From Inonotus obliquus (taxonomy: Eukaryota; Basidiomycota; Agaricomycetes; Hymenochaetales; Hymenochaetaceae), in NCBI GenBank assembly GCA_032164295.1, contig JAJHTX010000010.1, positions 1,426,001 to 1,490,000 on the forward strand: a stretch of 64,000 nt of DNA. Reading direction: 5' to 3'. This document shows, one piece after another, positions 1,623-63,218 of the stretch. Every line of letters begins with the position of its first letter. The stretch's first letter is position 1. The notes beneath the pieces were generated by a model. The model did no database searches, was not told the origin of the DNA, and saw nothing but the letters and a program-made list of their open reading frames with translations. Position numbers and translations under genes: made by a program.

Positions 1623-1680
1623 TGAAAGGATTGTGCTGAAATTTTGATTCAATTAGGAACGCCGATCGAAACTACCCCAG

Positions 1681-2716: not shown

Positions 2717-3194
2717 AATAACGAATCAGATCGAGAGTAGGAACTACGGAGCGTAGGAAGTGGTCCGTCCACAACATGAGGAAAAGGTATAAATAGTTGT
2801 AGACTTAGACCGTAGCTCCCCATCTTTCTTTCAATCGTCTTGTACATCGAGTTCTCTTAGGCATCTAGCTTCTAATCTGAAGACCACCTAATCTGCTTAA
2901 CCTCTCTTACTCTACGGCGTGGAGCGATTGATTAGTCGCCCACCGACTAGGGAAGCTTACGAACGGCAGTCAACACTGTCCTACTAGTCTGTCAACGAGG
3001 TTGAGGCCCGACTTGATTAGTAAACGAGAGCGTCTGAGGCAACACTTAGTATACTTGGGAATCTGCCCTGCTTGTGAAAACCGAGTAGGCTCCGGAAACT
3101 CTTAGAAAAGCATCGCCGAACCCGTAACACTATCGGACCGTCCTATTGTGGTTACTGTATAGTCCCTTTAGGGCGAGCGTTTTCTAACATCCTG

Positions 3195-42615: not shown

Positions 42616-42931
42616 ATATCTACCCGACCAATATTTATAATATCCGGTCTGGCAATACCCTTATTGATTCTTAAAATATCACCCAAGTAGATATCTTGAT
42701 TGATATTTAAAATATATGCCAAGTCGATATCTTAAATATCGATAAAAATATCAGTAAGAGGATTTTTTAAATATCTCACGGATGGGGATATCCTTATTTA
42801 TATTTAAAATATCGACACGTGAAATATATTATAAGTATCGGCGCAGCCGGGACACTTATCGATATTTAAAATATCGGCAAAAAAATAATTTAAAATAATG
42901 CCCCCTCCGATATTCTATTTTGCCCGCCGTG

Positions 42932-43757
42932 GTTACGTTGACTGCGGCTACGTTATAAGTGACAAAACCAGAAATGTCGAGCTCCTGCAGTGCTGTTGAA
43001 ACCAATAAAAAATCAAGCAACTCGGACAGATGAATTTGTCCTCGAAGACCAGGAGGAGGGGGAAAAACTTGAGGTCGAAGGGATGGAGAGCATGGAATGT
43101 CGGCATCTCGATCTAATCGAAAACGAACCAAGCGCTTGGCAAGGGATGGATGAGGAACAAAATTGACCTCCAGATTGCGAAGTGAAGGAAGGTTGCATGC
43201 CTCATAAAAAAGTGTGCCACAGAGGATAGAAAGATGTAGATCCTGAAGAGAATTTGCGTTTGCAAGGAAATCCCTCAGGGAATCCAGTTCATAATCTCGA
43301 ATTCGTTCCAATCTACACTGAACCAGGTTTCTCCCGAGTTCCGTCGCAGGAACGAAGTCGGCCTCTAGGCTTTCGAGGTGTGGAAAGTTCCATTCTTTGA
43401 GAATATCCATGCCGGGTACATCGCGGGTATGTCATATCACCAAACTGCGGAGATTCTGCGCGTTCCAGCCAACCAGAATCGGCCCAAATTTTTCCCATGA
43501 TGATTTGTCAAAATAACCGAGTTCCAGCTCTTCCGGTTCAAGAGATAGAATACATTCCATGGAAGACAACGGGGATTTGGGATAGAGCAAAGCCTTCAGC
43601 GAGATAAACCTGCTTGCTTCAGCAATTGCAACGCTCTGTTCTGGTGGCTGGTTCGAATCTATGCGATACCCATCCCACATTTTCGGCATGGACATCATCA
43701 CTCTCCTGAACCTCTTGCACACAAGTGATAGTGCCACTTTCTCCTCCAGCGTGGTTG
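42932..43757 (-). pseudogene. F-box/LRR-like gene J, middle fragment
   Basis: Between the solo LTR and the TIR transposon lies the middle of gene J: TLEEKVALSLVCKRFRRVMM, then the leucine-rich segments up to the AAVNVT motif. A TGA at 43434-43432 replaces CGA of relatives (ATATGACAT against ATACGACAT); the frame is otherwise continuous. There is an unusual Pro-rich insertion (PQVFPPPPGLRGQ) near 43060. Removal of both mobile elements would give one collinear gene from the F-box to the C-terminus. Confidence 0.8.
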
Positions 43758-45288
43758 TGTCAGAAGAAATTGACTTATTTGGCATGCAGATCCAGAAATG
43801 CTACAACCCGATAAATTCCCACAAACACCTGACATCCCGCTTTGTGCAAAACGCGATTTGCACAAAGCGTTAATGACACGTGACCAGGAGAATGGAGAGA
43901 CAATTCGATCGAACATATTATACACACACACGCTATTGTCCCTGGGGCTCGACATTACCAGGACAAATCAATACACCAATATGCAGGTTCTGTGAGTGGG
44001 CACATGAGGAAGCATGGATGCTGCAGACATGGATACTCGAGGACGCAGTAAATCATATGCTTCGAAGTGACCCGTATTCAATTCGAACCAACCACCATTG
44101 GTCGACGGTTGCAGAAACAACTCAACCATTGTTCACACCTACACTAAATGCATACTTGCATGAAGTTACGGTTTGGACAGGAAGAGGGTTACACTACATT
44201 GCGAATGCAGGTGTAATTGCATAGACAAGAAGATCGATACATTCCCAGCTATGCCGACGAGTGGCAATACAACCCGACTGGCCAATACATGCGGAAGCTA
44301 CAAGAGAACATCAAGCACTACGCAATAATCTATTTGGCAACATAGTGGCACGATGGAAATCAGAGCAGAATCAACTACCGGGAATGATAGCATTGGAAAT
44401 CTCTCAACCGAGGGAACGGATCAACGGGGCGATCTTAACCTTCATCATGGAAGGGATCAGTGGCGATCAGGTGCAAGGAACGGAGATACGGATACCTGAC
44501 GGATATCGCCGAGCAACGATCTGGCGGACTGGGTTACCTGCCATAGTACAGGCAGAACCATATAGGCCCGCCGCTCCGGTGATTGATAATCGAGCTAATC
44601 CTATTGAGGGAGGAAGCCCGAGTCGACCGAGACAGCCGAATGGCCCAGCAGCACCTGCAGAGGATGAAGACATGGCAGACTGTTCGAGTTGCTGTGCATG
44701 ACATCATAAGGAACATTCGAGAGGGACTGACGTGGCAGTGCGGAAGGCACGGAGCTCCGCACAGCCACAGGATTGGCCGGTGATGGCGTGATCGCCGTAC
44801 ACTGACCAGGTATGAAGTCATATTGAAGGATCTGGAAGGTTGCAGGAGGAAATCGGAAGTGCATCGCCACCCGATTGGAGATTGCGGAGTATCAGACAAG
44901 ATAGGGGCTGTGCTCGGAAAGATCAGGAGGCTGTGCCCGAGGGAGCCCGGGTAACTCAATAGATAGAAGCTTCGGGTATAAATAGGCCAAGCGAGGGTGG
45001 CTATGTCCCTCAGCAAAATTCTTCTGTACTAGTGAATACAAAGAAGCCCCACAAAGCTTCTCTTCTTCGCTACCACTCTTATCATCGGTACTAGTGTCCG
45101 GCCGGTCCCTTGACCCCGACTAAGTACTGTTGCTACTCTGCTCTACAAAGCACTGCCTCGCACTTCCCATCGCTTATCAAAACGGATTGCGAATATTGCC
45201 AGAGTGAGTGGACTTGTTCTGGTGCATCGATCGTGTTGATCAGTCGATCAATGTCGGTCTGCTGATCCGATCTGCACTGGTCCTAACA
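43758..45288 (+). mobile_element. Solo LTR of a second LTR-retrotransposon family
   Basis: The 1531-bp element starts TGTCAGAAGA and ends GGTCCTAACA. It is flanked by the direct repeat GGTTG (43753-43757 and 45289-45293). Its two sides join the F-box of gene J exactly (TLEEK... on the left, PDEVLAEIFVLTAT on the right). There is no internal pol. A TATAAATAG box is at 44977-44985 on the + strand, followed by a C/T-rich stretch, as expected in an LTR promoter. A broken ORF lies upstream of the TATA box, as in the other LTR family. The overall sequence is not visibly similar to the 1567-bp LTR. Confidence 0.85.
43880..44701 (+). pseudogene. LTR-encoded ORF of the second family, broken
   Basis: One reading frame runs from 43880 to 44701 with a single in-frame TAG at 44222-44224. 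It contains CRFC, then WILEDAVNHML, then HHWSTV and a later IALEISQPRERINGAILTFI segment. The ORF of the 1567-bp LTR has the same order: CYKC, IILREATGML, THWTIV and LGWRIPSNDTRRSVRLLI. The position upstream of the TATA box is also the same. I infer a distant common origin. Function is unknown. Confidence 0.5.
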
Positions 45289-45360: not shown

Positions 45361-45390
45361 AATCGCAAATGAACCAACTGTATGGCAAGG
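45361..45390 (-). pseudogene. F-box/LRR-like gene K, fragment left of the retrotransposon
   Basis: On the minus strand this reads on from PSLA at the other side of the retrotransposon as a degenerate LVHLRL (KHLVRFRL in intact genes). It shows that the chromovirus inserted in a family copy. The fragment ends abruptly next to the J fragment, so a deletion had fused K and J. Confidence 0.65.
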
Positions 45391-45863
45391 TGTTAGAAAA
45401 CGCTCGCCCTAAAGGGACTATACAGTAACCACAGTAGGACTGAGACCAGTGTTACGGGTTCGGCGATGCTTTTCTAAGAGTTTCCGGAGCCTACTCGGTT
45501 TTCACAAGCAGGGCAGATTCCCAAGTATACTAAGCGTTGCCTCAGACGTTTTCGTTTAGCTGATCAAGTCGGGCCTCAACCTCGTTGACAGACTAGTAGG
45601 ACAGTGTCGACTGCCGTTCGTAAGCTTCCCTAGTCGGTGGACGACTAATCAATCGTTCCACGCCGTAGAGTAAGAGAGGTTAAGCAGATTAGGTGGTCTT
45701 CAGATTAGAAGCTAGATGCCTAAGAGGACTCGATGTACAAGACGATCGAAAGAAAGATGGGGAGCTACGGTCTAAGTCTACAACTATTTATACCTTTTCC
45801 TCATGTTGTGGACGGACCACTTCCTACGCTCCGTAGTTCCTACTCTCGATCTGATTCGTTGTT

Positions 45864-46157
45864 CTAGCTTTCAAACTCGTCTGGTAATTCCATTGTTCTG
45901 CTGCGGATTGACTCATCGACTGCGCCCTGTGCAGGATGATGACTCGGCGTTGACTCATCTTGACTTGAACTGAATTGAAACCTATGCTCGGGGTCGGCCT
46001 TGTGCTGCGCCCTGTGCATGGAGTGAGTCAATGAGTGAGTCATTGAATGCGTGTTCGTATGCCATTGGTTTTGCATGGCTGCGCCGTAGTTAGAGTTCGC
46101 TTGTCCGCAGTTGCTCGTGCATTTAAGGAATTCCGTTGGGGTTCCGTGGTATAGCAT
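45864..46157 (-). CDS. Second LTR ORF (97 aa), 3' LTR copy
   Basis: This ORF overlaps the end of the 258-codon ORF by 35 nt in another frame. It has CTSNCG near residue 14, a THSMTHSLTHSMH repeat and a polar tail. No family is recognised. It could be the 3' part of a frameshifted product or chance; its retention in all three LTR copies is weak support because the copies are closely related. Confidence 0.35.
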   Translation of the reverse strand: MLYHGTPTEFLKCTSNCGQANSNYGAAMQNQWHTNTHSMTHSLTHSMHRAQHKADPEHRFQFSSSQDESTPSHHPAQGAVDESIRSRTMELPDEFES

Positions 46158-46899
46158 CTGGGGCTATGAAGGCTGTGATTTGCTTGTCGCCTCGGGACTC
46201 TTGTTCGGGGCCGTCAAGTGTGATTCGACATCGGATATCATCGTGGGGAAACCAAGGTGGTTTAACGTATGTGCCTATGGCGATGAGTAGCCGTACACTT
46301 CGTCGAGTATCGTTCGAAGGTATTCTCCAGCCTAGGTATAGGTCTCCTTGTAGTCGAATAGCTTTGCAGTATGCCCATAGTTCCCTGAGTGTGTTTGCAA
46401 CCCATGCCGCTGTTATCGGTGAGCGGCGGTTTGTAACATAGTCTGCACTGATCTCCACGAATGTGCTTGGGCACTCGAGTGCTAATATGTCGTGGATTCC
46501 TACTATTGTCCAGTGCGTCTTTGGTTGCATGCCTATTGCCGTATCCATTGCTATTGTTGACCTCGTGCGATTTCGAACGACCTCCGGGGGATTGTGATAT
46601 TCTCGATAAGCTGTTGCTCGTTCGCTGGACACATGATATGTTAACATGCCCGTTGCCTCCCGTAGTATTATCTTGTGTAGGTCTTCGATGATCTGTCGCA
46701 CTCTTCTGCATTTATAGCAAGCCGTTGGAGGTTGCTGTACTTGCTGCATCGTTTGCGAAGGTTTAGTGTGATCGTCGGGATTAGCGTTGCTAGCCGATGC
46801 TTCTTGATCGTCGGCTTCGGATTGTATTAGATTCGCGTGTTCTCCGCTTCTCGCTGTCGATCCTGATCGTCTCCGGCCAGTGAAATTAACCGGTCCCAT
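46123..46899 (-). CDS. LTR-encoded protein of 258 aa, 3' LTR copy
   Basis: The ORF starts 58 bp inside the LTR and ends before the TATA box, so it lies in the U3 part, in the sense orientation of the element. The basic N-terminal region (TGRRRSGSTARSGEH) is followed by a polar linker. CYKCRRVRQIIEDLHKIILR follows near residue 62, then a region of about 190 residues with THWTIVGIHDILALEC and LYLGWRIPSNDTRRSVRLLI. There is no signal peptide or membrane segment. In the genomic RNA this copy would be at the 3' end. The broken copy at 1681 and the related ORF at 43880 show that the design is not unique to this element. Function unknown. Confidence 0.6.
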   Translation of the reverse strand: MGPVNFTGRRRSGSTARSGEHANLIQSEADDQEASASNANPDDHTKPSQTMQQVQQPPTACYKCRRVRQIIEDLHKIILREATGMLTYHVSSERATAYREYHNPPEVVRNRTRSTIAMDTAIGMQPKTHWTIVGIHDILALECPSTFVEISADYVTNRRSPITAAWVANTLRELWAYCKAIRLQGDLYLGWRIPSNDTRRSVRLLIAIGTYVKPPWFPHDDIRCRITLDGPEQESRGDKQITAFIAPDAIPRNPNGIP

Positions 46900-46957
46900 C
46901 CGGGGTAGTTTCGATCGACGTTCCTAATCGAATCAAAATTTCAGCACAATCCTTTCA

Positions 46958-46970
46958 CTCGCCCCCCTCC
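46958..46970 (-). other. Polypurine tract
   Basis: On the minus strand GGAGGGGGGCGAG directly precedes the 3' LTR (TGAAAGG). This is the expected position for plus-strand DNA priming. The tract holds one C. Confidence 0.8.
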
Positions 46971-47330
46971 AAGATCTTTACTCGATAGGGAAAAGATCTC
47001 AATTGGGTTGAAATTGCGATGAGATCGTAGGATCGTGTGCGAAATTAGTGACGATGTTGCTTCGTATTTCCTTCGAAATTCGTGTGCGTGATGCAGTTGA
47101 AAGACTTATTGAAGTCTGAAATCGTATCCTGAGCTCGATTTGAGAGCGTGCTTCGAGGGTAATTTGAAGAAATTAAAGGGAGATAGCTTGACTCCCAGTC
47201 GAATTGTTGTTTCTTCTTGCAAATTTCCTTTAAGTTTCACTTTAGTGGACTTAGACTTGTCACACCAAAAGCAAAATAAGAAAATTTTCTTTATTATTTT
47301 TCCTCCCTCTGCACCTCTTGCCCTGCCGGT

Positions 47331-48095
47331 TCAGTCCTCCCAATGGGTCTGACCGTCATTCCATCCGCGCGCTGTCCACTCGCGATCTCGGCTCTCACCG
47401 GGGCTTACTGAGCCTTCGCCTGACTCTGGCGATTCGGCTGCCCGGTTGTGCAGGCCTGACCTTTCCGACACCCGCTGTCTACCTCGCATCGGCCACCACG
47501 GGGCATTAGCCGGCGGTTGCGGACCCTGTAGGATGTACGGGCCGCCCCACGCGTTTGCTTCTGCTTCTGCCGCGTCTGCTTCTGGCCATGCTTCTGGTTC
47601 GGGTTGTACGTAGCCGGGTAGGTCGACGTATAGGTCGTCGGGCGTTGCCGGTGGTGCTTCTACCGGTGCCTGTGCCTGTTGTGCTTCTGCCGTGTTCCTG
47701 ATCGCTTCGAGTTCTTCTATTGCCGCCCGCATCCTTGCGACATCATCGACCAGCTGATCGAGTCTTGCTGCGCTCGATGTTGCTAGGTCTTCGATTGCTC
47801 GGTCGGGGATGCTCTGTAGTACTTCTTGAAGGCGGTCTTCGATGCGTCCGAAGGACGTTGCGCTTAGGTGGTGGAGTGCCTCGACCGTGAGGTTACGGCC
47901 TTGGGCTCGTGCTCGTCTCACTTCTTGGGTCCTTCGTGACTCCTCTATCCTCATCTCGTGCTGCTCTCTGTTTATTCCCTCTAGCCTCACTACTAACTGC
48001 TCCCAGCGTTCCAGCGCTCGTCGTACGACGTCCACGATCACAACGGCTGTGGTGCAGACCGTGATGATGAGGAGTGCGGTGTAGTAGGCGTTCAT
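47331..48095 (-). CDS. Post-pol ORF with N-terminal membrane segment (254 aa)
   Basis: This is the last internal ORF before the 3' LTR, where retroviruses carry env. Residues 6-27 form a hydrophobic segment (TALLIITVCTTAVVIVDVV) preceded by a very short N-terminus. A long charged, probably coiled-coil region follows (about 28-145, with RIEDRLQEVLQ and ARMRAAIEELEAIRN), then a Pro/Ala/Glu-rich disordered tail. This suggests a membrane-anchored coiled-coil protein. There is no cysteine pattern, signal peptidase site or fusion segment that would support a viral envelope protein. No family is recognised. It has an ATG start and is fully open. Confidence 0.6.
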   Translation of the reverse strand: MNAYYTALLIITVCTTAVVIVDVVRRALERWEQLVVRLEGINREQHEMRIEESRRTQEVRRARAQGRNLTVEALHHLSATSFGRIEDRLQEVLQSIPDRAIEDLATSSAARLDQLVDDVARMRAAIEELEAIRNTAEAQQAQAPVEAPPATPDDLYVDLPGYVQPEPEAWPEADAAEAEANAWGGPYILQGPQPPANAPWWPMRGRQRVSERSGLHNRAAESPESGEGSVSPGESRDREWTARGWNDGQTHWED

Positions 48096-48519
48096 GGTGT
48101 TCGAGATGTCGTTGGTGGTTCTAGACTACTTGTGCTTTTCCAGCTGAGGCTCTCCTGTTGGATTCCTGCCTCTATTTATGCTTTTCCAACTCGTACCCTT
48201 CGTGACTCTGTTCTAGTCTTCCCCGGGTTCACCGTGCTGCGGTTGCTGCGGTTTTCAATTGTCTTGCTGCGATCTGTGCTTCGCTGTCGCACTCTATTAT
48301 TGTCGTGCTGCGGATTTCCCATATCCTGTCATTCGTGTACGAATTATCTTGCCCGTAGTCGCTTCGTAATAGTCCCGTGATTCTTCGATGTATGTGCGCA
48401 GTTGACTTGGCATTCATAAATACCATAGGGGATTTCGGGTTGCATAATGTTGAATAGATACCATAGGGTGTGCATGTGTTGTCCTGTCAATAAATACCAT
48501 AGAAGAATGAGTTGCATAG

Positions 48520-49536
48520 TTATGCTTCGTCATCTGTCGGCGCTAGATCGAATTCTTCTGTGTCATCGTGGGATCGCTTGCGACTATTGGATGTCTCGTC
48601 CTCGGGTTTCCGGGATTGTAGCTTCTGCGGATATTGATATACGTCCGTGAACCAGCTACTATCTTTAGGATGTAGTACTGCGCCTAGGGTGTATCTAAGG
48701 CGGTATTCCGCACTATTGAGTGCCTGGAGGTAGTCCTCGTCGTAAGGCCAACAAATAGATTGGTCTAGTTTGTCCGGAGGGTTCTCCCATAATCCTTCCG
48801 CTGCTTCTTTCGCTTTGTTGCGGCGTTCCGTTTCTTCGTTCTCGATCAGTTTCCACGCCTCCAAGTATGGTAAGTCTCGATGAGGTGTGTCCCATGGGAT
48901 AGATCGTCCTGGTGCCTTTGTTCGTTCCCATGTTTGTCTAAGTATGTTGATCGTAGAATAGAAACGTCTCTTGAGTCGTGCATATTGAATTTGCTGCTGC
49001 GCGATGTACTCGATGTAGTCGCGTTCTTTGGCTGTGATACAGTGGATAAGCGACCATCGCATGACCTTGTGTTCGAATGCTTCTGTGAGCTCGACTCGAT
49101 ATGCGCAGATCCTTGTTGCTGCATAGAGTAATGCGACGCAATTGTTGGCTGTTTCTGTTTGTGACAACAGCAATGGTTGATACGATAGAATCGCTGTGCT
49201 GAGATCTAGAGCATATGCGATGTAAGCGTCGTCATTGAGTCTCCTCACTGAATTGTAAGCTTCTGTAGTCATGGCAAACCAAGATCCAAAGAATATCGGT
49301 GGCATTAGCAGCATATTGTATCCCATGCCGCGTTGATGTGCCATGCTGATCTTGTCCATGAAATCGTCGAAATATCTGCCGACGTTCGAGGGTATGATGT
49401 CATCCCATAACATCTCGGTGTTCTCCCTGTCGTCTAGCTGTGGCCATTGATATTTGTCGGGTCGTGACTGTATGTCGACTTCTGTGATATTGAGTTGCGC
49501 ATGCTGTACTTCTGCAAGTGTTTCGAGTAGTGGCAT
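48520..49536 (-). CDS. Post-pol ORF of unknown function (338 aa)
   Basis: The ORF lies 312 nt after the end of pol on the same strand and is fully open from an ATG. The first 300 residues look like a folded, mostly helical protein rich in Trp, Tyr and Gln (WDDIIPSNVGRYFDDFMDKI, YAARICAY-like helices, QQQIQYARLKRRFY). The C-terminus is charged with a possible nuclear localisation signal (SRKRSHDD) and an acidic end. It is not a recognisable part of pol. I do not recognise a family. It could be an accessory protein gained by this lineage. Expression would need splicing or a subgenomic promoter. Confidence 0.6.
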   Translation of the reverse strand: MPLLETLAEVQHAQLNITEVDIQSRPDKYQWPQLDDRENTEMLWDDIIPSNVGRYFDDFMDKISMAHQRGMGYNMLLMPPIFFGSWFAMTTEAYNSVRRLNDDAYIAYALDLSTAILSYQPLLLSQTETANNCVALLYAATRICAYRVELTEAFEHKVMRWSLIHCITAKERDYIEYIAQQQIQYARLKRRFYSTINILRQTWERTKAPGRSIPWDTPHRDLPYLEAWKLIENEETERRNKAKEAAEGLWENPPDKLDQSICWPYDEDYLQALNSAEYRLRYTLGAVLHPKDSSWFTDVYQYPQKLQSRKPEDETSNSRKRSHDDTEEFDLAPTDDEA

Positions 49537-49848
49537 TTCGAAATGTAGACTTGTTTCGTGTCGAATGAGAGTTGTTTCTGGCGTTGGTGCCGTTCATAGG
49601 TCGTTACTGCTTGTTCTTATAGCTCTGTGTCGTTACTGCGTATGACTGGGTGATCGGTCCAGTTGTTTTCGATATGACTTGACCTCTACTGCGTATACTG
49701 TGCCGCAGTGTCTCTCGTTCGTCCGTGACTGTTCATGACTTGTCGTGACTTCGTTAATTCTCAAGCATTGCTGCGAGAATGTCATCATCTGCTGCGATCT
49801 GCTGTGATCAGCTGCGGATGAGTACTACTTGCTGTGCCGCAGTTATGC

Positions 49849-52800
49849 CTACTGCGGGCGTAGTCGTCTGCTGCTGCGTGTAGTCCTTCCTCGACTGCGC
49901 ATGCTGCGTTGACTGTCTTCTGATACTGTGCTTTCGGTATCAGTATTACCTTCTGAGTCTGACGTCGATCCTTCTGATCCGTCGGAGGATTCTTCCGTGT
50001 CCTCGTGACTCGTTTGTTTCCTATTCCGGCGCCTCGCGGATAACCATTGCGTAAGGTTCCGTGGCTTCTGCGCCTGAGGGTACTTCTTGTGGAAGTCCTC
50101 AACTAGCTTGTACGTGTGCTTCAGGTTCTCCAGCGGTTCCCATGTTGTTTCTGCATAGCCTTTCCATCTGACTAGGTATTGCACCTTGCTGCGCCGCAGT
50201 CTGGTATCTTGAACTGCTTCGACTTCGTATTCGGCTGCGCCTTCCACTTCTACTGGTGGTGGTTCCGTAAGTTGCTTACGTCCTGGGAATTCTTTCCGCT
50301 TGTATGGCTTCAATAGACTCGCATGAAATACTGGGTGAATTGCCATCGTTTCAGGAAGTTTCAGTCGAAATGAAACCTTCCCTACGGCCTTGTCGACTTT
50401 ATAAGGCCCTGCCCATTTCATGGCTAGTTTCTTCGTCGGTTCGAGTCTTGCTAAGTTCTTCATATCCAACATCACTTCGTCTCCAGGTCGATAATCTGGT
50501 AGCTTCCCTCGATGTAAGTCTGCATATAACTTCATCGCTTCGTTAGCCTGCTTAATGCTTGCATAGGCTTGTCGCTGCGCTTGTTGAAGCTCCTCTCGGT
50601 AATCTTGTGCTTCTGGGACGTTGCTTTCGTCGTGATTGGCAAAGTCAGTTGTTGGATTCCATCCGTACAACGTGTAGAATGGTGATTGACGTGTCGCTGA
50701 ATGCTGTCTGTTGTTATAGGCGAATTCTGCGAGATCCAAGTAATGTGCCCAATCTGTCTGTCGGTAGGACACATAGCAGCGTAAGTACTGTTCCATCGTT
50801 TGGTTCAGTCGCTCTGTTTGACCATCGGTTTGTGGGTGATACGCGGTGCTAGTTTTCCAATCGATTTCGAGGAGTCGGCAGAACTCCTTCAAAAACTGCG
50901 CCGTGAAGTTGCTTCCTCTGTCGGAGAGTACAACCTTTGGGGTCCCATAATGCTTGAAGATGTTTTGGATGAACATCTGTGCAATGCGTTTGGCATTCGG
51001 TACACCCGTCGTAGGGATGAACCTCCCCATCTTGGTAAGTCTATCCACAACAACCAATATGGTGTCATATCCCTCGGTACTGACTGGTAGGTCTGTAACT
51101 AGGTCACAGGAAATGGCTTCCCATGGCCTTTCAGGTGGGGATATCGGTTGAATCGGTGGCTCGCGATTTTGCCGAAGAGGCTTTGATCGCTGACATGCGT
51201 CGCAAGTTGTTACGTAGTCTCGGACGTCCGATCGAAGGTTTGGCCAATAGTATCGTCTCTCCAGAAGCTCAGTGGTTTTGGCTACTCCGGGATGGCCTGC
51301 AGTTGTGTGGTCATGGTGCCTTCGCATTAGTAGACTTCGTAGGTTGGCGTTCGGCGGGATCCATAACTTTCCATCTACATAACGAGTTCCATCCGTGTAG
51401 GTGTGGCTTCTGTCTTTCGTATTCCGTATGACGTTCCATTCGGTTTGTGCCTCCTTCGTCGCATAGTCCTTTCGAATAGTTCGAAGTATCGGGTCCGTGA
51501 TCCTGACTGACGTAGTTTTTAACTCGTATAGTCCTGCGACTTCCGTTCGTTTCAACGTTTGCTGCTGTATGCGGTCTGCTGGTAGCATAGTGATCTTCTC
51601 TGTGTCTTTGCCGATTTCGTAATCGGTTCGCCTTGATAGTGCGTCGGCTTTGTTTTCCTTGCCTGGCCAATGTATCATCTTGAAGTTAAACTGGGATAGC
51701 TTTAGCATCCATCGTTTCAGCTTCTCAGATAGGTTCTGTCCTGTCATGAACCATTGCAGGTTCTTATGATCCGTTCGAATGATAAAAGGATGTTTCGTTC
51801 CTTCGAGCAAGTGTCTCCATTCGTTGAGTGAATGAACAATTGCGAACATCTCTTTTTCGTGAACTGGCCAGTTGAGTTGTGCTCCTGACAACTGCTTCGA
51901 CATTGTGGCTAACGGTCGTAGTTCGCCCTTGTCGTCTTCTTGTTGGAGTAAAGCTCCGATCGCAAATTTCGATGCATCTGTCTCGAGGATGAATGGTTTA
52001 TCGTGGTTCGGATAACCTAGCGTTATTTCCGTTTGAAACGCTTGCTTGATGTCCTCGAATGCTTGCTGACATTCAGTTGTCCATACGAACTTCCTATCCT
52101 TCTTGGTGAGTTCGTTAATTGGGTGTATGCGCTCTGCATAGTTCTTCACGAATCTTCGATAGAAGTTGCAAAATCCTTGGAACTTCCTAATCTCCCGTTT
52201 CGTCGTTGGTGTAGGCCATTCTGCGATTGCTTTGAGTTTGTACGGGTCCATTTGTACTCCCTTGTCGCCCACTATGAAGCCTAGGTAGTCTAGCTTCTTC
52301 TGTAGGAAATGGCACTTCTCGATCTTCAAGTAGATATCGAGTTCTCGGCATTTCTTCAAGACTGCTCGTAGGAGTTTCCAGTGTTCCTCCTCAGTCTTTG
52401 CCTTTCCGATGATGTCGTCCAGGTAGATAAGTATCTCCTGACTTCGTAGCCATTGCTCAAAGTTGTCGTTCATGAATCGTTGGAATATTGCGGGTGAGTT
52501 CTTCATTCCGAACATCATAACGAGTGGCTTGTAGATTGCGTTGCCGACTCGGAATGCCGCTTTCCATTCGTCTCCTTCCTTGATACGCAAGTTGTGGTAT
52601 CCGGACCGCATGTCCAATGTGAAGAAGTAATTGTTGCCTGCCAACTTGTCTGGTAACCCATTCATGATTGGAATCGGGTACGGGTCTGGTATCGTGATTT
52701 GGTTTATCGCTCGATAGTCCGTTACGACTCTTGCCCCTCCGTCCTTCTTTCCGACAAAGAATACGGGTGATGCTACTGGGCATGGTTCGTGTGGTTCGAC

Positions 52801-55276
52801 CTTGGTAATCCATCCTTTCTTCATCAGCTCATCTACGTGGTTGTCCAGTGCTTCCTGTTCGACTGGCGTGAGCTTGATAATAGGTCGTGGTTTCGGTAAC
52901 GGTTCCTTCTCATCGAGGTGTATGACCATGTCATACTTCGTATGTCTCGGTAGTCGTCTTGCCCTGTCTGGATCGAATACGTCTGCATAGTCTGCTATCT
53001 GCCTTGGTAGCAGTTTGCGCCAATCTCGTTTCTGCGTGTCTAGCAATCCCTCTGCTGCTGCTTTCTGCTGCGAGTACTGCTGCGCTACTGAGCTAACCTT
53101 GTTCAATGGTTGCTTCTCTTGGCGATGCTGTCGATTCGTATTAGGTGACCAATTTCGTTTGATCTCAAACATTTCTGCGAGATCCTCCTTCTGCAGTAAG
53201 GGTTTTGATTTACCTCGAGCCTCGGTGGCGAGATACGCTATTCGTTGCTGAATAGGTGATGGTTCGTTGGTTACCATACGTTCGATATGCATTTCTTCTT
53301 GAGGTTGGGTTCCTCCTGGTTCTTGCAGTTCGTTCATAACTTCGTCTTGATCCGTGTGCTCCCACCTTGTTCTTTTCGGTGCGGGGCTTCGTGTTCGTGT
53401 ACTTCCTGTACTATTGATAGACTGTCTTCGCCGATGTCCTAGTATCGGTTTGTCTTCGAATCGTTCCTTTCGTGGCATAATCCATGTGCCTTTCGGATCA
53501 AAGTTTCCTACGGCTTCTTCTCCTTCTCGAAGATAACCTTTCCAGTACTTGAATGTAGGGTCTTCCTTGACTACTCGTGGTTTCGTTGTCTTCCGTTCGA
53601 CTGACGGTGACTCTTGTCTTCGCTTTCCTAGCGATGTCGTACTCGGTTGCAAGGGCTTATTGCGACTGCCTTGACTCTGTACTCGTGTGTCAGGTCTTTC
53701 TGCCTGTTCATTCCCGAATCTTGATATAGGCGATCTTGATTCGTCTTCGGGCCTTATTGGTACTGCCCAGTCCTGTCGAGCCTTATTGCCAATGCTCTGA
53801 CTAGACTGCAAAGTCTTATTGGCGCTGCTTTGTCTTGGTGCGTTCGACGTTCGTTCACCTTCTGGCGTCCGTGCTCTCTTCCTTGGAGCATTGCTGAATT
53901 GACTTCCTGATCGTGGTCTAATTCTCGGTGGTGAAACGTTCCTTGTTTCGTTTCTCGTCGATCGGCTTTCGCTTCGGTTTCTGCCTTCCATAGGGTGGTC
54001 GTCCCTTTGCCTTTCCTTCGTGTTGAGGTCTGGCCTAATCCATATTCCACTATCGTTGTCGCTATCGCTGTCGGTTTCTGAGTTGTCAGATGAGTCGGAT
54101 CCAGGGCTCTTCGTAGCTTTAGCTTTCGTCTTCCTGCCATAGGCTGTCTTGCGCGTAACAGGTGATTTACTATCCAACGGCAACGTCTTATTGGTACTGC
54201 GTTGACTGTTCAAGGGCTTATTGCCAATGCCTTGTGGTTTCGGTCGTTGATCGTCTCGACTCTTCAAGGTCTTATTGCGACTGCCTTGTGCCTGCTTGGT
54301 CTTATTGCCACTGCCATGCTGCGATCGTTGATCTACTTGTGGAACCTTTCGTTTCTCTGTCTTGTATAGAGCTTTCGATGTCTTCGTGCCTTCGTCTTGG
54401 GTAATGGCTCTTTCATTCCCGTACCAGGATGGTCGCTCCTGACTAGTCGCCTCTCCTATTCGATTGGGCCTAGCTTTCCTTCGTTGTTCGCGATTACAAC
54501 TGTTCTCCTGATCGTCTACCGATTTGCGCTTGTCGGTTACCAGATTTCCCTTTGGTCCGTTGACGCTTGGGTCGTTTCGTGTAGCCTTATTGCCATTGCT
54601 ACTCTGGTTCGATCGTAAGGTCTTATTGACTCTGCCTTTCGTAGTCTTATTGCCATTGCTACCCCGCCGTTCGGTCTTATTGGTGCTGCCTGAACGCGGT
54701 GAGGGCTTATTTGTTCTGCCTCTACGATTACGGTTTGTACTTTTCCGTTTTCGTTTCCGTTTCTTGCTTGTCGACTCTGCTCGAACGATACTGAGCTCGA
54801 ATGGTATCGTTTGTCCATTTCCTTCCATGACTTGTTCCTTCCAATCGATGATCGGGTTGGCCTTGCCCAAATAATCGATGCCTAGTATGATCTGATCCGT
54901 TCCCGTATGTGCGACTGCCAGAGTTTGACCGATGGGCTTGATTCCGTCAAATATAAGTGCGTCCACTTCGTACTTGATTGCTCCTTTTCGGTTTGATGTT
55001 CCATCTGCATTTCGCAACGGTCTAGGTTGTGATAGCGTTCGTCGTGGTAAGTCGTGTTTCCGTACTAACTCCGGATGAATAGTACTGCATGTTGCTCCTG
55101 AGTCGATAAGTGCTTTGACTGCTAAGGTTTGCGTTCCCACAAGAATCCTGATAGGCAATCTTGGGTGTAATGCATATGTCGGTAATCCTTTACTGTACAT
55201 TTCTTCGCAATCCTTCTTACCCTCTCGCTTCGCAGTCTTGAGCGGAGGTGCTAGTCTTTTCCCTGACCTTGTGCCT
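49849..55276 (-). CDS. Pol polyprotein: protease, RT, RNase H, integrase, chromodomain
   Basis: The frame is open from 55275 and the first ATG is at 55200 (1783 residues). Retropepsin-like protease: LIDSGATCSTIHPEL, Asp33. Then a 500-residue basic linker with at least 12 copies of an (S/G)xxNK(T/P)L motif. Reverse transcriptase at about 760-975 with VTDYRAINQ, LDMRSGYHN and the catalytic YLDD (926-929). RNase H at about 1065-1190 with ETDASKFA. Integrase with HHCC (H1295/H1303 region, CDAC 1333-1336) and catalytic Asp1366, Asp1427, Glu1463. The chromodomain is at about 1658-1708 (YLVRWKGYAETTWEPLENLK). All key residues are present. The frame is -1 relative to Gag and overlaps its end by about 25 nt, so Pol is probably made as Gag-Pol by frameshifting. 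The chromodomain probably guides integration to marked chromatin, as known for chromoviruses. Confidence 0.95.
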
Positions 55277-56366
55277 TAGCCTTTCCTTTGTTAGGCTTCT
55301 GGTCGCGTGGTTTGGGATTGACGTTTCGCTTGTTCGTATGATCGTCGTCTTCTTCTTCCTCGGATTCGGCTTCTTGAATTCTCGCGTGCATGGTTCTTCT
55401 ATTCTTCTTGTGATGCTTCGACGATCTTCCACGTGCTCCTTTAGACGTGTTTGGTCGACGATGTTGGCGGTGATTACCTAGTGCTCCTTTAGACGTAGGT
55501 GATCTTCTCGGTTCGGGGCATTTGCTTGCATAGTGACCCTGTCTTCCGCAATTGTAACATCCTGATGATCCCTTCTTCGGCAAGCCTCGGATTGCATCGA
55601 TGTCCATTGCGTTCGGATCCCTTTCTAGTCTTGTAGGCTGCTCGTACCTCGGTTGTCCATGAAATGAATACCGCGGTTGATATGTTCCTTGCGTGAGCTG
55701 AGCCTTTGTCTTGTTCATGACTGCATATTGCTCCGTTATTGCCATCCATTCTTCATAACTGAATTTCGTGAATGCTTCCATGTCGTGTGCGAGTACGCGA
55801 TTGATAAGCCATTGATCCAATCCTTTGATGTAGCAGTGCTTGATCGTATTCTCGTCCACTGTGCTTGCAATCTTCGTTCGTAGTTGCCTGAACGCGTGAT
55901 TGTAACTCTCGATAGGTTTGCTGGCCTGTTTGATATTGAATATCTTGTTCAGGGCCTCGAGTTCTTGTGGAACGGTTTTGCCTGCTTTGGTACGAATGAA
56001 TTGAATCATATCCCTGAGTGATGCGAACATAGCGGTAGGAGGTTTCGCAACCGCTCCTGCTGCATCTACGACGGTAGGTAAGCTCTTGAGTGCTCCGGTG
56101 GTAGCGTCGAATGATACGGTGAGTTGCTTTTCGAGGAACCAATTGAATGCATCTCCCTCGATAGCTAGGAATAGCGCGTTCGCAATTTCCTTCTCGTCCT
56201 TAATTCCGTTTGACACTAATTTTGCCACACTCCTGTCTACCCATTGATCGATACTTTCGTCTCGTGCGCCTAGAAACTTTGGTAGTTTGATCGACAATCT
56301 TGCCATTCGACTAGTAAGCTCATTGATCCGAGCTTGTAGTTGATCTGGTGTTGGAGGTGTTGCCAT
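55251..56366 (-). CDS. Gag polyprotein with CCHC zinc knuckle (371 aa)
   Basis: Nucleocapsid/capsid precursor. The capsid-like part spans about 25-225 (KLPKFLGARDESIDQWVDRS, then FNWFLEKQL, FIRTKAGKTVPQELEALNKI and SYNHAFRQLRTKI), typical of Ty3/gypsy Gag. A CCHC knuckle CYNCGRQGHYASKC is at 270-283. A basic tail follows. The stop codon is at 55253-55251. Directly before it is GGGAAAA (55263-55257) in the reading G GGA AAA. The start overlaps the pre-gag ORF by 47 nt in the +1 frame. Confidence 0.93.
   Translation of the reverse strand: MATPPTPDQLQARINELTSRMARLSIKLPKFLGARDESIDQWVDRSVAKLVSNGIKDEKEIANALFLAIEGDAFNWFLEKQLTVSFDATTGALKSLPTVVDAAGAVAKPPTAMFASLRDMIQFIRTKAGKTVPQELEALNKIFNIKQASKPIESYNHAFRQLRTKIASTVDENTIKHCYIKGLDQWLINRVLAHDMEAFTKFSYEEWMAITEQYAVMNKTKAQLTQGTYQPRYSFHGQPRYEQPTRLERDPNAMDIDAIRGLPKKGSSGCYNCGRQGHYASKCPEPRRSPTSKGALGNHRQHRRPNTSKGARGRSSKHHKKNRRTMHARIQEAESEEEEDDDHTNKRNVNPKPRDQKPNKGKAKAQGQGKD
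55257..55263 (-). promoter_or_regulatory. Probable -1 frameshift site between gag and pol
   Basis: The heptamer GGGAAAA is read G GGA AAA in the Gag frame, which fits the X XXY YYZ rule for -1 slippage. It lies one codon before the Gag stop. The pol frame is the -1 frame and is open from 55275. A slip here would lead through RLAPPLK to the first Pol ATG without a stop. Confidence 0.75.
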
Positions 56367-57201
56367 TGTCGGTAAATGCTACTACGCGAGGTGGTCTGAT
56401 CGGTAATAGAGTTGTTTCGAATGTTTCAACGATTGGTACGCTTGTCTGTACGCCGCTTGATACTGTCGCGGGTTCTTCTTCCAATGTCAAGTTACGGATT
56501 CTTGTCAAGACTTCTTCGATCTGTTCACGTGGAATGAAGGTGAACTGTTCGATGTGCGTTTCGCCTGAGTCTATCGATTCGTTACTTTCCAATGACCTTT
56601 GGATTTCGTTGCGTGTTTCTTGAATACGTTGAGTTGTTTCGATGTGTTCTCTCTGGATATTTCCGATTAACTCTGTGAGTTGCTGGTACTGGTCGTCGAG
56701 CTTCTTGTTCTGCTCTTCTAGCTGATTTGTTCTATCAACGAGTCCGTTGATTAACGTTCGTTCGACGAAGAATCGGTGTCTTGTCGATTGCTCGAATTCC
56801 TCGAGATCCTTGGCTAGTCCAGATACTGTAACTCCTTCTCCTGTAGCGGTTTGCTCTTCCTGGAGATTAGACCTCTGTAAGTTTGCTGGCGTGCTTCCTG
56901 CGATAACGTTGTCTTGGAGTCCTTCGACGGCTGCTATAATTCTTCTCGTTAAGAATTTGATTTCGTCGATTTCGATTTGACGTTGTTCCTCGTGGATCTC
57001 CAATAACTCTTGTCTGTTGTGTTGTGCGATCACTTGTCTTTCGAGTGTCGCAATCCTTGCTAGGGTTTCGTATTCCCTTGTCAACTCTCGTGCTTGTCTT
57101 GCGTTTCGATTGTTGCCTCGACGTTCTGGCTGTTCTTGTGTGTCGTTGCGTGGACCTCTTGGTAGGTTGCTTCGACCGTTACCACGTCGTTGATGTTGCA
57201 T
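56320..57201 (-). CDS. Pre-gag coiled-coil ORF (293 aa)
   Basis: The first internal ORF of the element. It has a basic N-terminus (RRGNGRSNLPRGPRND), then long heptad-like helices (about 40-100 and 135-205, for example LARIATLERQVIAQHNRQEL and NQLEEQNKKLDDQYQQLTEL) and a Thr/Ser-rich end. It overlaps gag by 47 nt and is in another frame. Typical Ty3/gypsy elements have no ORF in this place. It may be a separate structural protein or an N-terminal Gag extension joined by a frameshift. No conserved domain is recognised. Confidence 0.65.
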   Translation of the reverse strand: MQHQRRGNGRSNLPRGPRNDTQEQPERRGNNRNARQARELTREYETLARIATLERQVIAQHNRQELLEIHEEQRQIEIDEIKFLTRRIIAAVEGLQDNVIAGSTPANLQRSNLQEEQTATGEGVTVSGLAKDLEEFEQSTRHRFFVERTLINGLVDRTNQLEEQNKKLDDQYQQLTELIGNIQREHIETTQRIQETRNEIQRSLESNESIDSGETHIEQFTFIPREQIEEVLTRIRNLTLEEEPATVSSGVQTSVPIVETFETTLLPIRPPRVVAFTDNGNTSNTRSTTSSDQ

Positions 57202-57761
57202 ATATCGATAAGCGAATTGGCTTCTTTAGTTGACTTCGTATCCTTCCTGGATAATGTTCTTCGTAGTCGTCAGATTCTTTTCTCCTCCTGTAAGCCCAGG
57301 TTTCCTTCTGAATCAATCTTCAACTAGCTACGAGTCCGTCGACTTCCGATGAAGGTGACTCTAGTAGACTTGTACTCGATTCGATGTGCGATGGGACACT
57401 TGATCGTATATCGTATCGGTGATAGTTTCACTGTAGCTCGACTACGTATGTAGGAACTGCAGGTAATGGTTCTTCGACGAGTGGCTGGCAATTACAACTG
57501 CTCGAGTCGAAGTTGGGTGAATACAACTGATACTCTTCCTGACTAACGTTTGCTACGCAAGCTCAGTAAAGAATAACAGTGGCTAATTTGATAATGATGT
57601 GAGTAATTTGTAGAACGGTAGTGACGTGCACCTTTCACTAGCGTTAGACGCTGTTGGTTATTACACTCCCAATTGCGAGTGGATCTTCTTTCTTCGTATG
57701 TTAGAAAGCGATAACACTTGATCTACTGAGATTCCCGAAGGAGATCTTTCTTTCGATCGAA
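57202..57761 (-). other. Leader of the chromovirus with self-priming site
   Basis: The 560-bp untranslated leader lies between the 5' LTR and the pre-gag ORF. Two bases after the LTR, positions 57759-57744 read CGATCGAAAGAAAGAT on the minus strand. This is the exact complement of ATCTTTCTTTCGATCG at 58129-58114, which begins 34 nt after the first base of the TATA box. The usual TGG of a tRNA-type primer site is absent. This is the arrangement known from the self-primed Tf1/sushi-type elements. The rest of the leader has no supported feature. Confidence 0.8.
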
Positions 57762-58234
57762 TGTTAGAAAACGCTCGCCCTAAAGGGACTATACAGTAAC
57801 CACAGTAGGACTGAGACCAGTGTTACGGGTTCGGCGATGCTTTTCTAAGAGTTTCCGGAGCCTACTCGGTTTTCACAAGCAGGGCAGATTCCCAAGTATA
57901 CTAAGCGTTGCCTCAGACGTTTTCGTTTAGCTGATCAAGTCGGGCCTCAACCTCGTTGACAGACTAGTAGGACAGTGTCGACTGCCGTTCGTAAGCTTCC
58001 CTAGTCGGTGGACGACTAATCAATCGTTCCACGCCGTAGAGTAAGAGAGGTTAAGCAGATTAGGTGGTCTTCAGATTAGAAGCTAGATGCCTAAGAGGAC
58101 TCGATGTACAAGACGATCGAAAGAAAGATGGGGAGCTACGGTCTAAGTCTACAACTATTTATACCTTTTCCTCATGTTGTGGACGGACCACTTCCTACGC
58201 TCCGTAGTTCCTACTCTCGATCTGATTCGTTGTT

Positions 58235-58528
58235 CTAGCTTTCAAACTCGTCTGGTAATTCCATTGTTCTGCTGCGGATTGACTCATCGACTGCGCCCTG
58301 TGCAGGATGATGACTCGGCGTTGACTCATCTTGACTTGAACTGAATTGAAACCTATGCTCGGGGTCGGCCTTGTGCTGCGCCCTGTGCATGGAGTGAGTC
58401 AATGAGTGAGTCATTGAATGCGTGTTCGTATGCCATTGGTTTTGCATGGCTGCGCCGTAGTTAGAGTTCGCTTGTCCGCAGTTGCTCGTGCATTTAAGGA
58501 ATTCCGTTGGGGTTCCGTGGTATAGCAT
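58235..58528 (-). CDS. Second LTR ORF (97 aa), 5' LTR copy
   Basis: Identical in translation to the ORF at 45864-46157. In this LTR it lies upstream of the element's own TATA box. Confidence 0.35.
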   Translation of the reverse strand: MLYHGTPTEFLKCTSNCGQANSNYGAAMQNQWHTNTHSMTHSLTHSMHRAQHKADPEHRFQFSSSQDESTPSHHPAQGAVDESIRSRTMELPDEFES

Positions 58529-59270
58529 CTGGGGCTATGAAGGCTGTGATTTGCTTGTCGCCTCGGGACTCTTGTTCGGGGCCGTCAAGTGTGATTCGAC
58601 ATCGGATATCATCGTGGGGAAACCAAGGTGGTTTAACGTATGTGCCTATGGCGATGAGTAGCCGTACACTTCGTCGAGTATCGTTCGAAGGTATTCTCCA
58701 GCCTAGGTATAGGTCTCCTTGTAGTCGAATAGCTTTGCAGTATGCCCATAGTTCCCTGAGTGTGTTTGCAACCCATGCCGCTGTTATCGGTGAGCGGCGG
58801 TTTGTAACATAGTCTGCACTGATCTCCACGAATGTGCTTGGGCACTCGAGTGCTAATATGTCGTGGATTCCTACTATTGTCCAGTGCGTCTTTGGTTGCA
58901 TGCCTATTGCCGTATCCATTGCTATTGTTGACCTCGTGCGATTTCGAACGACCTCCGGGGGATTGTGATATTCTCGATAAGCTGTTGCTCGTTCGCTGGA
59001 CACATGATATGTTAACATGCCCGTTGCCTCCCGTAGTATTATCTTGTGTAGGTCTTCGATGATCTGTCGCACTCTTCTGCATTTATAGCAAGCCGTTGGA
59101 GGTTGCTGTACTTGCTGCATCGTTTGCGAAGGTTTAGTGTGATCGTCGGGATTAGCGTTGCTAGCCGATGCTTCTTGATCGTCGGCTTCGGATTGTATTA
59201 GATTCGCGTGTTCTCCGCTTCTCGCTGTCGATCCTGATCGTCTCCGGCCAGTGAAATTAACCGGTCCCAT
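58494..59270 (-). CDS. LTR-encoded protein of 258 aa, 5' LTR copy
   Basis: Identical in translation to the ORF at 46123-46899. Because it lies upstream of the element promoter, this copy would need a promoter of its own or from the flank. The functional copy, if any, is more likely the one in the 3' LTR. The CYKC motif and the full length are intact. Confidence 0.55.
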   Translation of the reverse strand: MGPVNFTGRRRSGSTARSGEHANLIQSEADDQEASASNANPDDHTKPSQTMQQVQQPPTACYKCRRVRQIIEDLHKIILREATGMLTYHVSSERATAYREYHNPPEVVRNRTRSTIAMDTAIGMQPKTHWTIVGIHDILALECPSTFVEISADYVTNRRSPITAAWVANTLRELWAYCKAIRLQGDLYLGWRIPSNDTRRSVRLLIAIGTYVKPPWFPHDDIRCRITLDGPEQESRGDKQITAFIAPDAIPRNPNGIP

Positions 59271-59328
59271 CCGGGGTAGTTTCGATCGACGTTCCTAATC
59301 GAATCAAAATTTCAGCACAATCCTTTCA

Positions 59329-59760
59329 CAAGGGATGGGTGGGGAATGAAGCTGACCTCGAGAGTGCAAAGTGAAGGAAGGTCAGAGACTTCGTAAAAAC
59401 GTCCGCTGAAGATGAAAAGACGTATATCCTGAAGAGAATTTGCGTTTGCAAGGAAATCTCTCAGAGATCCGGGATAGAACCAAGCCTTCAGCGAAATAAA
59501 GTTTTTCGCCTCAGCAATTGCAATGGTCTGTTGTGACTGGTCCAAGTTGGGGCGATTCACGACATCATCATGAGAGTTTTCACAACTCAATGCATTGAGA
59601 GAGACAGGGTCTTTTCAACGTGATGTCAGCTCGCAACTCAGCAGATAACGCAGCCATGCTGTCCAACCCGTCTTCTACTAGCGACTATGCAGTCGCTGTA
59701 GCCTGATCGAGAGCGGAGAATTCCTTGGAGTACTGCACTTTGCTAAGCTAGATAGTGATG
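59329..59760 (-). pseudogene. F-box/LRR-like gene K, fragment right of the retrotransposon
   Basis: The minus strand shows an exon-1 relic around 59745-59640 (FSALDQATATA, a TAG in place of TGG, then VEDGLDSMAAL). An exon-2 relic (NSHDDVVNR, then QQTIAIAEAKNFISLKA, then LRDFLANANSLQD) leads to FIPHPSL at the border. The F-box itself is deleted and the leucine-rich part is shortened, so the gene was dead before the retrotransposon came in. The continuation is at 45390-45361. Confidence 0.8.
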
Positions 59761-63136: not shown

Positions 63137-63218
63137 TTATTTATGGGTACTATACAACACCACGACCGCAAATACTACGTCCTGGATTCCCGCAGGTCAA
63201 CGTAAGGTTATAAGATAC

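What the first reader, a model, noticed from the sequence alone, without database searches (positions are those of the whole stretch)
45391..59328. Giant chromovirus with four non-canonical ORFs
The element has the normal gag and pol with a chromodomain, but also a pre-gag coiled-coil ORF (56320-57201), two ORFs after pol (48520-49536 and 47331-48095) and an ORF in each LTR. All are open, in sense orientation, and the LTRs look identical. Fungal Ty3/gypsy elements usually carry only gag and pol in about 6-7 kb. The structure is seen directly; that the extra ORFs are functional is inference.
Basis: partly seen in the sequence, partly recalled or inferred. Interest (0 to 1): 0.9.

Follow-up and report, generated by a model that had tools for sequence, protein, structure and literature searches.

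The report
Giant fungal retrotransposon with accessory genes
A 13.9-kb mushroom-type retrotransposon carries, besides its normal gag and pol genes, four extra protein genes kept by natural selection (one inside its terminal repeats), and its RNA leader appears cleared of start codons so that ribosomes can reach the second gene, a layout recalling some plant pararetroviruses.

Summary
Window 45391-59328 (minus strand) is a complete, very young Ty3/gypsy chromovirus: identical 1,567-bp LTRs, 5-bp target duplication, gag, PR-RT-RH-IN-chromodomain pol. The four extra ORFs look like real genes. Among genomic copies, pre-gag, ORF A and ORF B show pN/pS 0.12-0.33. The LTR ORF is neutral in private variants of 20 LTRs outside the full-length elements (1.0) but constrained in shared ones (0.44) and between six full-length elements (0.21). 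A second family (RT 53% identical) also has a pre-gag ORF and a U3 ORF; a third, decayed family has a U3 ORF. All three fall in one pol clade (100/99), outside three canonical gag-pol families of the same genome. New here: from the inferred RNA start to gag, 1,767 nt hold one ATG (pre-gag's, weak context) before gag's own (strong context); 13 are expected. In family II, 2,550 nt hold one; 25 are expected, and its 535-codon pre-gag frame has none. That is the signature of leaky scanning, as in badnaviruses. All three families look self-primed (Tf1-like). RNA starts, mRNAs, proteins and accessory functions are inferred or unknown.

The parts
45386..45390 (.). target-site duplication CAAGG (left copy)
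   Evidence: read directly
59329..59333 (.). target-site duplication CAAGG (right copy)
   Evidence: read directly
57762..59328 (-). 5' LTR, 1,567 bp, TG...CA
45391..46957 (-). 3' LTR, identical to the 5' LTR
58494..59270 (-). U3 ORF, 258 aa, CxxC motif (CYKC), in 5' LTR upstream of the LTR TATA box
46123..46899 (-). U3 ORF in 3' LTR, 258 aa; the copy most likely expressed (inference)
   Evidence: selection; no ATG in the 430 nt before it
58158..58163 (-). LTR TATA box (GGTATAAATAG); start of RNA inferred about 58133
   Evidence: start not mapped
58114..58129 (-). 16 nt complementary to the primer-binding site; putative RNA 5' end that primes reverse transcription
57744..57759 (-). primer-binding site CGATCGAAAGAAAGAT, 2 nt after the 5' LTR
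57202..58133 (-). 932-nt leader without any ATG
   Evidence: 8.2 expected; 0 of 2000 shuffles
56320..57201 (-). pre-gag ORF, 293 aa, RG-rich N-terminus then coiled coil; no ATG in any frame between its own start and gag's
55251..56366 (-). gag, 371 aa, CCHC; its ATG is the second of the inferred RNA, strong context; overlaps pre-gag by 47 nt
49849..55200 (-). pol, 1,783 aa: protease, RT, RNase H, integrase, chromodomain
49613..49622 (-). TATA-like core before ORF A (CTATAAGAAC), unchanged in 17 of 17 copies
   Evidence: promoter inferred
48520..49536 (-). ORF A, 338 aa, acidic, helical in a low-confidence model, basic patch near the C-terminus
48172..48180 (-). TATA-like core before ORF B (CATAAATAG), unchanged in 17 of 17 copies
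   Evidence: promoter inferred
47331..48095 (-). ORF B, 254 aa, N-terminal hydrophobic segment (KD 2.43) then coiled coil
46900..47330 (-). spacer before the U3 ORF without ATG; putative site of a U3 ORF promoter
   Evidence: 0 against 4.4 expected, 10 of 2000 shuffles
46958..46970 (-). polypurine tract GGAGGGGGGCGAG before the 3' LTR
   Evidence: read directly

Best explanation
This is a recently inserted, self-primed chromodomain LTR retrotransposon of a clade with a 'complex' genome. Full-length RNA starts in the LTR about 30 nt after a TATA box; its 5' end pairs with the site just after the LTR to prime reverse transcription (inferred from sequence). Ribosomes scan 932 nt without any AUG; some start at the first AUG (pre-gag, weak context TAT-AUG-C), the rest pass through an AUG-free coding region to the second AUG (gag, ACA-AUG-G). 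Pol follows by frameshift or reinitiation. ORF A and ORF B are made from their own short mRNAs (TATA cores 77-86 nt before each ATG), and the U3 ORF from an mRNA that starts in the AUG-free spacer and runs into the 3' LTR. Shown: the anatomy, purifying selection, ATG depletion, similar layout in relatives. Inferred: RNA starts, leaky scanning, mRNAs. My best guess for the accessory proteins: pre-gag is an RNA-binding coiled-coil partner of Gag, ORF B a membrane-anchored coiled coil, ORF A and the U3 protein nuclear regulators or anti-silencing factors.
For: Selection, pN/pS for singleton/shared variants: ORF A 0.12/0.17, ORF B 0.25/0.33, pol C-terminus 0.39/0.23 (17 copies); pre-gag 0.24/0.15 (window plus 13 copies). 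Indels: ORF A+B (1,782 bp) have one 3-bp deletion and no frameshift; the spacers (about 1 kb) have 11 interior indels not divisible by three (10 were entered in the Fisher test, p=4e-5). U3 ORF: 20 spread places, private variants 1.01, shared 0.44 (p=0.009); one LTR each of six full-length elements, all variants 0.21 (p=0.003). ATG depletion: family I 0 against 13.0, family II 1 against 24.6, both 0 of 2000 shuffles; 11 of 13 further copies have only the pre-gag and gag ATGs. Self-priming complementarity 16, 11 and 11 nt in three families, each 33-36 nt after a TATA box. Tree: families I, II, III in one clade, 100/99; three canonical families outside.
Against: No RNA or protein data; I placed the RNA start myself. 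Pre-gag and gag overlap by 47 nt in both families, so a +1 frameshift cannot be excluded. The decayed family III copy has 8 ATGs in the 557 nt held before its gag. No homologue of ORF A or the U3 ORF reached E 0.01 in a collection of 5.8 billion proteins, although close pol relatives are there. Both structure predictions were poor (pLDDT 41). ORF A and ORF B could be reached by splicing. Over all variants together the 20 spread U3 ORFs give only 0.75 (p=0.09), and the six full-length elements there are those whose LTRs were among the best-scoring 30, which favours low counts of amino-acid changes.
Confidence: 0.8

Rival explanations
1. Pre-gag and gag are joined by programmed +1 frameshifting into one long Gag; the 47-nt overlap is the shift window.
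For: Overlap of exactly 47 nt and the same relative frame in families I and II. Ty3 uses +1 frameshifting, though between gag and pol (recalled).
Against: Does not explain a leader and coding region free of ATG in all three frames, nor gag's own ATG in strong context right at the start of the overlap. I saw no slippery site that I recognise, but made no systematic search for one.
Confidence: 0.12
2. The extra ORFs are chance open frames in a young element.
For: The element is young (identical LTRs), so frames had little time to decay.
Against: pN/pS well below 1 in pre-gag, ORF A, ORF B and in between-element U3 variants; diverged relatives keep pre-gag and U3 frames at 29-48% identity.
Confidence: 0.02
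3. Gag, ORF A, ORF B and the U3 ORF are expressed from spliced RNAs, and the ATG depletion only serves to keep pre-gag's ATG first.
For: Splicing makes extra mRNAs in retroviruses (recalled) and in RTBV for P4 (PMC5902531, passages).
Against: Pre-gag itself is cleared of ATG in all frames up to gag's ATG, needless if gag had its own spliced mRNA. TATA cores before A and B are unchanged in 17 of 17 copies while the surrounding spacers vary. Splice sites were not scanned.
Confidence: 0.2
4. It is an infectious, envelope-bearing or fusogen-bearing element, with ORF B as the membrane protein.
For: ORF B lies between pol and the 3' LTR and has an N-terminal hydrophobic segment. A listed abstract reports Drosophila LTR elements that pass between cells without Env (PMC11952523, search listing only).
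Against: The strongest hydrophobic segment of ORF B is N-terminal and followed by coiled coil; no Pfam match reached its cut-off. No dedicated membrane-topology program was available.
Confidence: 0.03

Closest known systems
Tf1/sushi-type self-primed Ty3/gypsy elements
   Same: Chromovirus pol and a primer-binding site complementary to the presumed 5' end of the RNA. Self-priming as a mechanism: PMC2864245, passage seen.
   Different: Tf1 is recalled as a small element with a single ORF and short LTRs; this one has six distinct long ORFs in 13.9 kb.
Badnaviruses and rice tungro bacilliform virus (leaky scanning)
   Same: Long upstream ORFs free of internal AUGs let ribosomes reach the next gene; non-AUG start of the first ORF in RTBV (PMC5902531, passages), as family II's Met-less pre-gag frame would need.
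   Different: Plant viruses. Here LTRs, integrase and chromodomain are present, and the nearly AUG-free stretch is longer (1.8-2.5 kb against about 900 nt).
Plant LTR retrotransposons with additional ORFs (Retand, Grande, Retrosat2 ORF0)
   Same: Extra ORFs between pol and 3' LTR or upstream of gag-pol (PMC7264820 passages; Retrosat2 PMC3485330 passages).
   Different: The passages seen do not describe an ORF inside the LTR or an ATG-free leader; neither paper was read whole.
Boty-like elements of Botrytis with brtn
   Same: Fungal Ty3/gypsy element with an extra gene (title cited in PMC7264820 and PMC8365987, passages; the original paper was not seen).
   Different: One antisense gene; here four distinct sense ORFs.
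MMTV (sag in the U3 region)
   Same: A protein gene inside U3 of the LTR (recalled).
   Different: No sequence relation was tested; different hosts and elements.

Membership tests
Ty3/gypsy chromovirus | LTRs with target duplication; PR-RT-RH-IN order; chromodomain after integrase | tested here: met
Ty3/gypsy chromovirus | Pol groups with fungal chromovirus pols | tested here: met
   (17 of the 120 listed proteins were put in the tree)
Self-primed (Tf1/sushi-like) elements | Primer-binding site complementary to the RNA 5' end, not to a tRNA | tested here: inconclusive
   complementarity met: 16 nt in family I, 11 nt in II and III; but the RNA 5' end is not mapped and tRNA 3' ends of the genome were not compared
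Self-primed (Tf1/sushi-like) elements | Cleavage and priming shown biochemically | not testable with these tools
   needs cDNA analysis
Caulimoviridae (badnavirus/tungrovirus) | ORFs upstream of the main ORF free of AUG | tested here: met
Caulimoviridae (badnavirus/tungrovirus) | No LTRs and no integrase (recalled) | tested here: not met
   LTRs and integrase present; so not a member
Enveloped errantivirus/retrovirus | env gene: signal peptide, ectodomain, membrane anchor, fusion domain | tested here: not met
   no Pfam match above cut-off; ORF B's best hydrophobic segment is N-terminal; no topology program was run
Complex retrovirus-like layout | accessory genes between pol and the 3' LTR and inside U3, under selection | tested here: met
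   membership in Retroviridae is not claimed

The most novel reading that the evidence does not exclude
A lineage of basidiomycete chromoviruses has independently evolved a complex-retrovirus/badnavirus-like genome. Genomic RNA is translated by leaky scanning over up to 2.5 kb cleared of AUGs, with a non-AUG-started 535-codon protein in family II; separate promoters feed accessory proteins, one of them coded inside U3; and these proteins act against fungal genome defence (RNA interference or DNA methylation).
Probability: 0.3. Interest if true: 0.82.

Novelty: new variant of a known kind. Interest (0 to 1): 0.66.

Why it matters
Fungal LTR retrotransposons are usually described as gag plus pol. 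A clade with accessory genes under purifying selection, a U3-coded protein, and an RNA leader shaped for polycistronic translation would show that retroelements without a known infectious stage evolve virus-like gene sets. It also gives a clean natural case for leaky scanning over kilobases in a fungus, and candidate proteins to test for counter-defence.

Tried and rejected
Chance ORFs: rejected by selection tests. Env reading: little support. Homologues of ORF A and the U3 ORF in the protein collection: none of 637 and 223 word-sharing candidates reached E 0.01. Homology between families: U3 ORF I-II weak (12/42 identities, E 0.027; 30 of 400 shuffles reach the score); U3 II-III 4 of 400, U3 I-III 156 of 400; ORF B against II pre-gag 2 of 400, but both are coiled-coil rich; ORF A against II pre-gag 9 of 400; pre-gag I-II none (148 of 400). 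Structure models of ORF A and the U3 ORF had pLDDT 41, so no fold search was run. One search was a bacterial promoter scan of 101 bases and says nothing. Gag pN/pS was not computed because gag copies were not fetched. Pre-gag: 13 of the 16 other places were fetched; dropped were two that looked like near-duplicates in the table (C12:413007, C4:640014) and the deletion copy C6:2507470. One search's ORF A and ORF B sets counted the window copy twice, so one search is cited for them. In one search the group that I called full-length held both LTRs of five elements and one LTR (L047) that lies outside any full-length copy; one search repeats it with one LTR for each of six elements (5 N, 10 S, 0.21). 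The 20 U3 places are spread over ranks about 45 to 146, all with full coverage, so indels could not be seen there.
Full report
WHAT IS THERE. Window 45391-59328 holds one complete LTR retrotransposon in minus orientation. The LTRs are 45391-46957 and 57762-59328, identical over 1,567 bp, begin TG and end CA in sense, and are flanked by CAAGG on both sides. In sense order: 5' LTR with U3 ORF (59270-58494), pre-gag (57201-56320), gag (56366-55251), pol (55200-49849), ORF A (49536-48520), ORF B (48095-47331), 3' LTR with the U3 ORF again (46899-46123). Pfam finds protease, RT, RNase H, integrase and chromodomain in pol and a CCHC knuckle in gag (the capsid match lies just under its cut-off); the four extra ORFs have no match above the curated cut-offs. 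The genome has 36.07 Mb in 30 contigs; size and the 13 large contigs fit Coprinopsis cinerea (recalled), but no call names the organism.

COPIES. ORF A has 17 full places and one partial, 98-100% identical in DNA; ORF B 18 places; pre-gag 17; the matching RT region 17 at 99-100%. The U3 ORF was found in 147 scored places out of 207 candidates, so LTR copies far outnumber full elements.

SELECTION. In 17 copies the spacers carry 11 interior indels not divisible by three in about 1 kb, while ORF A and ORF B (1,782 bp) carry only one 3-bp deletion; the pol piece has one 4-bp deletion at its very end. I entered 10 spacer events in the Fisher test (p=4e-5). pN/pS for singleton and shared variants: ORF A 0.12 and 0.17, ORF B 0.25 and 0.33, pol C-terminus 0.39 and 0.23; pre-gag 0.24 and 0.15 (window plus 13 of 16 other copies). 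Leaving out CpG transitions gives the same picture for pre-gag, A and B. For the U3 ORF, 20 places outside the full-length elements, spread down the ranking, have neutral private variants (1.01, as expected of dead LTRs) and constrained shared variants (0.44, p=0.009); all variants together give 0.75 (p=0.09). Between six full-length elements, one LTR each, it is 5 amino-acid-changing against 10 silent variants, 0.21 (p=0.003); these six are the ones whose LTRs were among the 30 best-scoring loci, which favours a low value.

RELATIVES. The nearest other family by RT (53%) was read at C8:1071500-1086500. Family II has LTRs of about 1.45 kb with a U3 ORF of about 253 aa (with a CxxC motif too), an ORF of 129 codons without Met, a pre-gag frame of 535 codons without Met, gag, pol and a 119-aa ORF after pol. 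Its pre-gag overlaps gag by 47 nt, as in family I. Pre-gag II has 16 close copies, 15 without stop, and two diverged places (family IV) at 29-46% identity, open for 513-514 aa. U3 ORF II has 125 listed rows; 32 of them lie at 42-48% identity over more than 200 residues, 16 of these without stop (my count). The 129-codon ORF has 16 close copies, all open, and two weak distant matches, one open and one with two stops. A third, decayed family (pol piece at C12:684542) lies between two LTRs (95.9% alike) with another U3 ORF, which has 78 matches in the genome. Three other chromovirus families, one copy each (L060, L061, L062), have LTRs of about 450-560 bp and only gag and pol. A tree of 23 RT/RNase H pieces (six from this genome, 17 chosen from the 120 listed proteins) puts families I, II and III, with proteins of Sanghuangporus baumii (P0002) and S. 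sanghuang (P0023) and four without organism name, in one clade (100/99), outside the three canonical families. Family IV was not in the tree because its letters were not fetched.

THE ATG-FREE LEADER. The LTR has GGTATAAATAG about 34 nt before a 16-nt stretch that is complementary to the sequence 2 nt after the 5' LTR. Families II and III show the same with 11 nt each, 33-36 nt after a TATA box. This is the self-priming arrangement known for some elements (PMC2864245, passage; Tf1 detail recalled). Taking the RNA start there, 932 nt follow without ATG (8.2 expected, 0 of 2000 shuffles), then pre-gag's ATG in weak context, 834 nt without ATG in any frame (4.6 expected, 5 of 2000), then gag's ATG in strong context. 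Together 0 against 13.0 expected, 0 of 2000 dinucleotide shuffles; gag itself has 21 against 15.1. In family II, 2,550 nt hold one ATG against 24.6 expected, and that one opens a four-codon frame. Of 13 further family I copies 11 have only the pre-gag and gag ATGs in this stretch; two have one more. Rice tungro bacilliform virus and badnaviruses are described as working this way: upstream ORFs free of AUG, scanned through by ribosomes (PMC5902531, passages). The spacer before the 3' U3 ORF is also free of ATG (0 against 4.4, 10 of 2000); in the part held for the 17 copies, 16 have none. The spacers before ORF A and ORF B are not depleted as a whole (5 against 3.8, 10 against 7.7), but after the TATA-like core one ATG (49597, before the inferred RNA start) precedes ORF A and none precedes ORF B in the window copy; in the 17 copies the last stretch before ORF A has none in 17 and that before ORF B none in 15. 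The cores themselves are unchanged in 17 of 17.

MECHANISM AND LIMITS. I read this as full-length RNA giving pre-gag and gag by leaky scanning, with short mRNAs for ORF A, ORF B and the U3 protein. A frameshift over the 47-nt overlap, or splicing, remains possible. Functions of the accessory proteins are guesses from composition: pre-gag RG-rich plus coiled coil, ORF B an N-terminal hydrophobic segment plus coiled coil, ORF A acidic and helical in a low-confidence model, U3 protein a CxxC motif with a low-confidence alpha/beta pattern. Against a simple story: the decayed family III copy has ordinary ATG density before gag (8 in 557 nt); I found no counterpart of ORF A in family II; sequence similarity between I and II is weak or absent for the extra ORFs; and nothing similar to ORF A or the U3 ORF was found in the protein collection although pol relatives are there.

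LITERATURE. Additional ORFs are known in plant elements (PMC7264820, passages; Retrosat2 ORF0, PMC3485330, passages), rotifers (PMC5408684, abstract and outline) and Botrytis (brtn, cited in passages). A survey of fungal LTR elements says that members usually encode two ORFs, gag and pol (PMC3248453, passages); in a Laccaria survey the word ORF does not occur in the main text (PMC3411680). Ten searches were run; in their listings I saw no report of a U3-coded protein or an ATG-free leader in a fungal LTR retrotransposon. Subscription papers and repeat databases were not searched, so an entry may exist.

Noticed in passing
window 43757-45288 (+): An older LTR of the third family, with its own broken U3 ORF (pieces 43877-44221 and 44225-44701, a stop between them), lies about 100 bp from the 3' LTR of the element.
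   Followed up: partly
window 1611-3190 (+): A further family I LTR, 96% identical, possibly solo; its U3 ORF is cut by a stop after 181 codons.
   Followed up: partly
G000:C12:390421-415968: Two family I elements stand in tandem and seem to share LTRs (three U3 ORFs 12,387 bp apart), as from unequal recombination.
   Followed up: no
G000:C6:2505291-2516271: One family I copy shows a single 1,700-codon frame across pre-gag and the RT region, with about 2.2 kb missing; looks like a deletion derivative.
   Followed up: no
window 4285-43757 and 63137-64000: Many diverged copies of a gene-like unit of about 1.6-2.5 kb (roughly 72-90% identical) lie in the rest of the window; the ORF at 42856-43410 looks leucine-rich.
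   Followed up: no
L057:1369-1758: Family II has a further ORF of 129 codons without Met before pre-gag, open in 16 of 16 close copies.
   Followed up: partly
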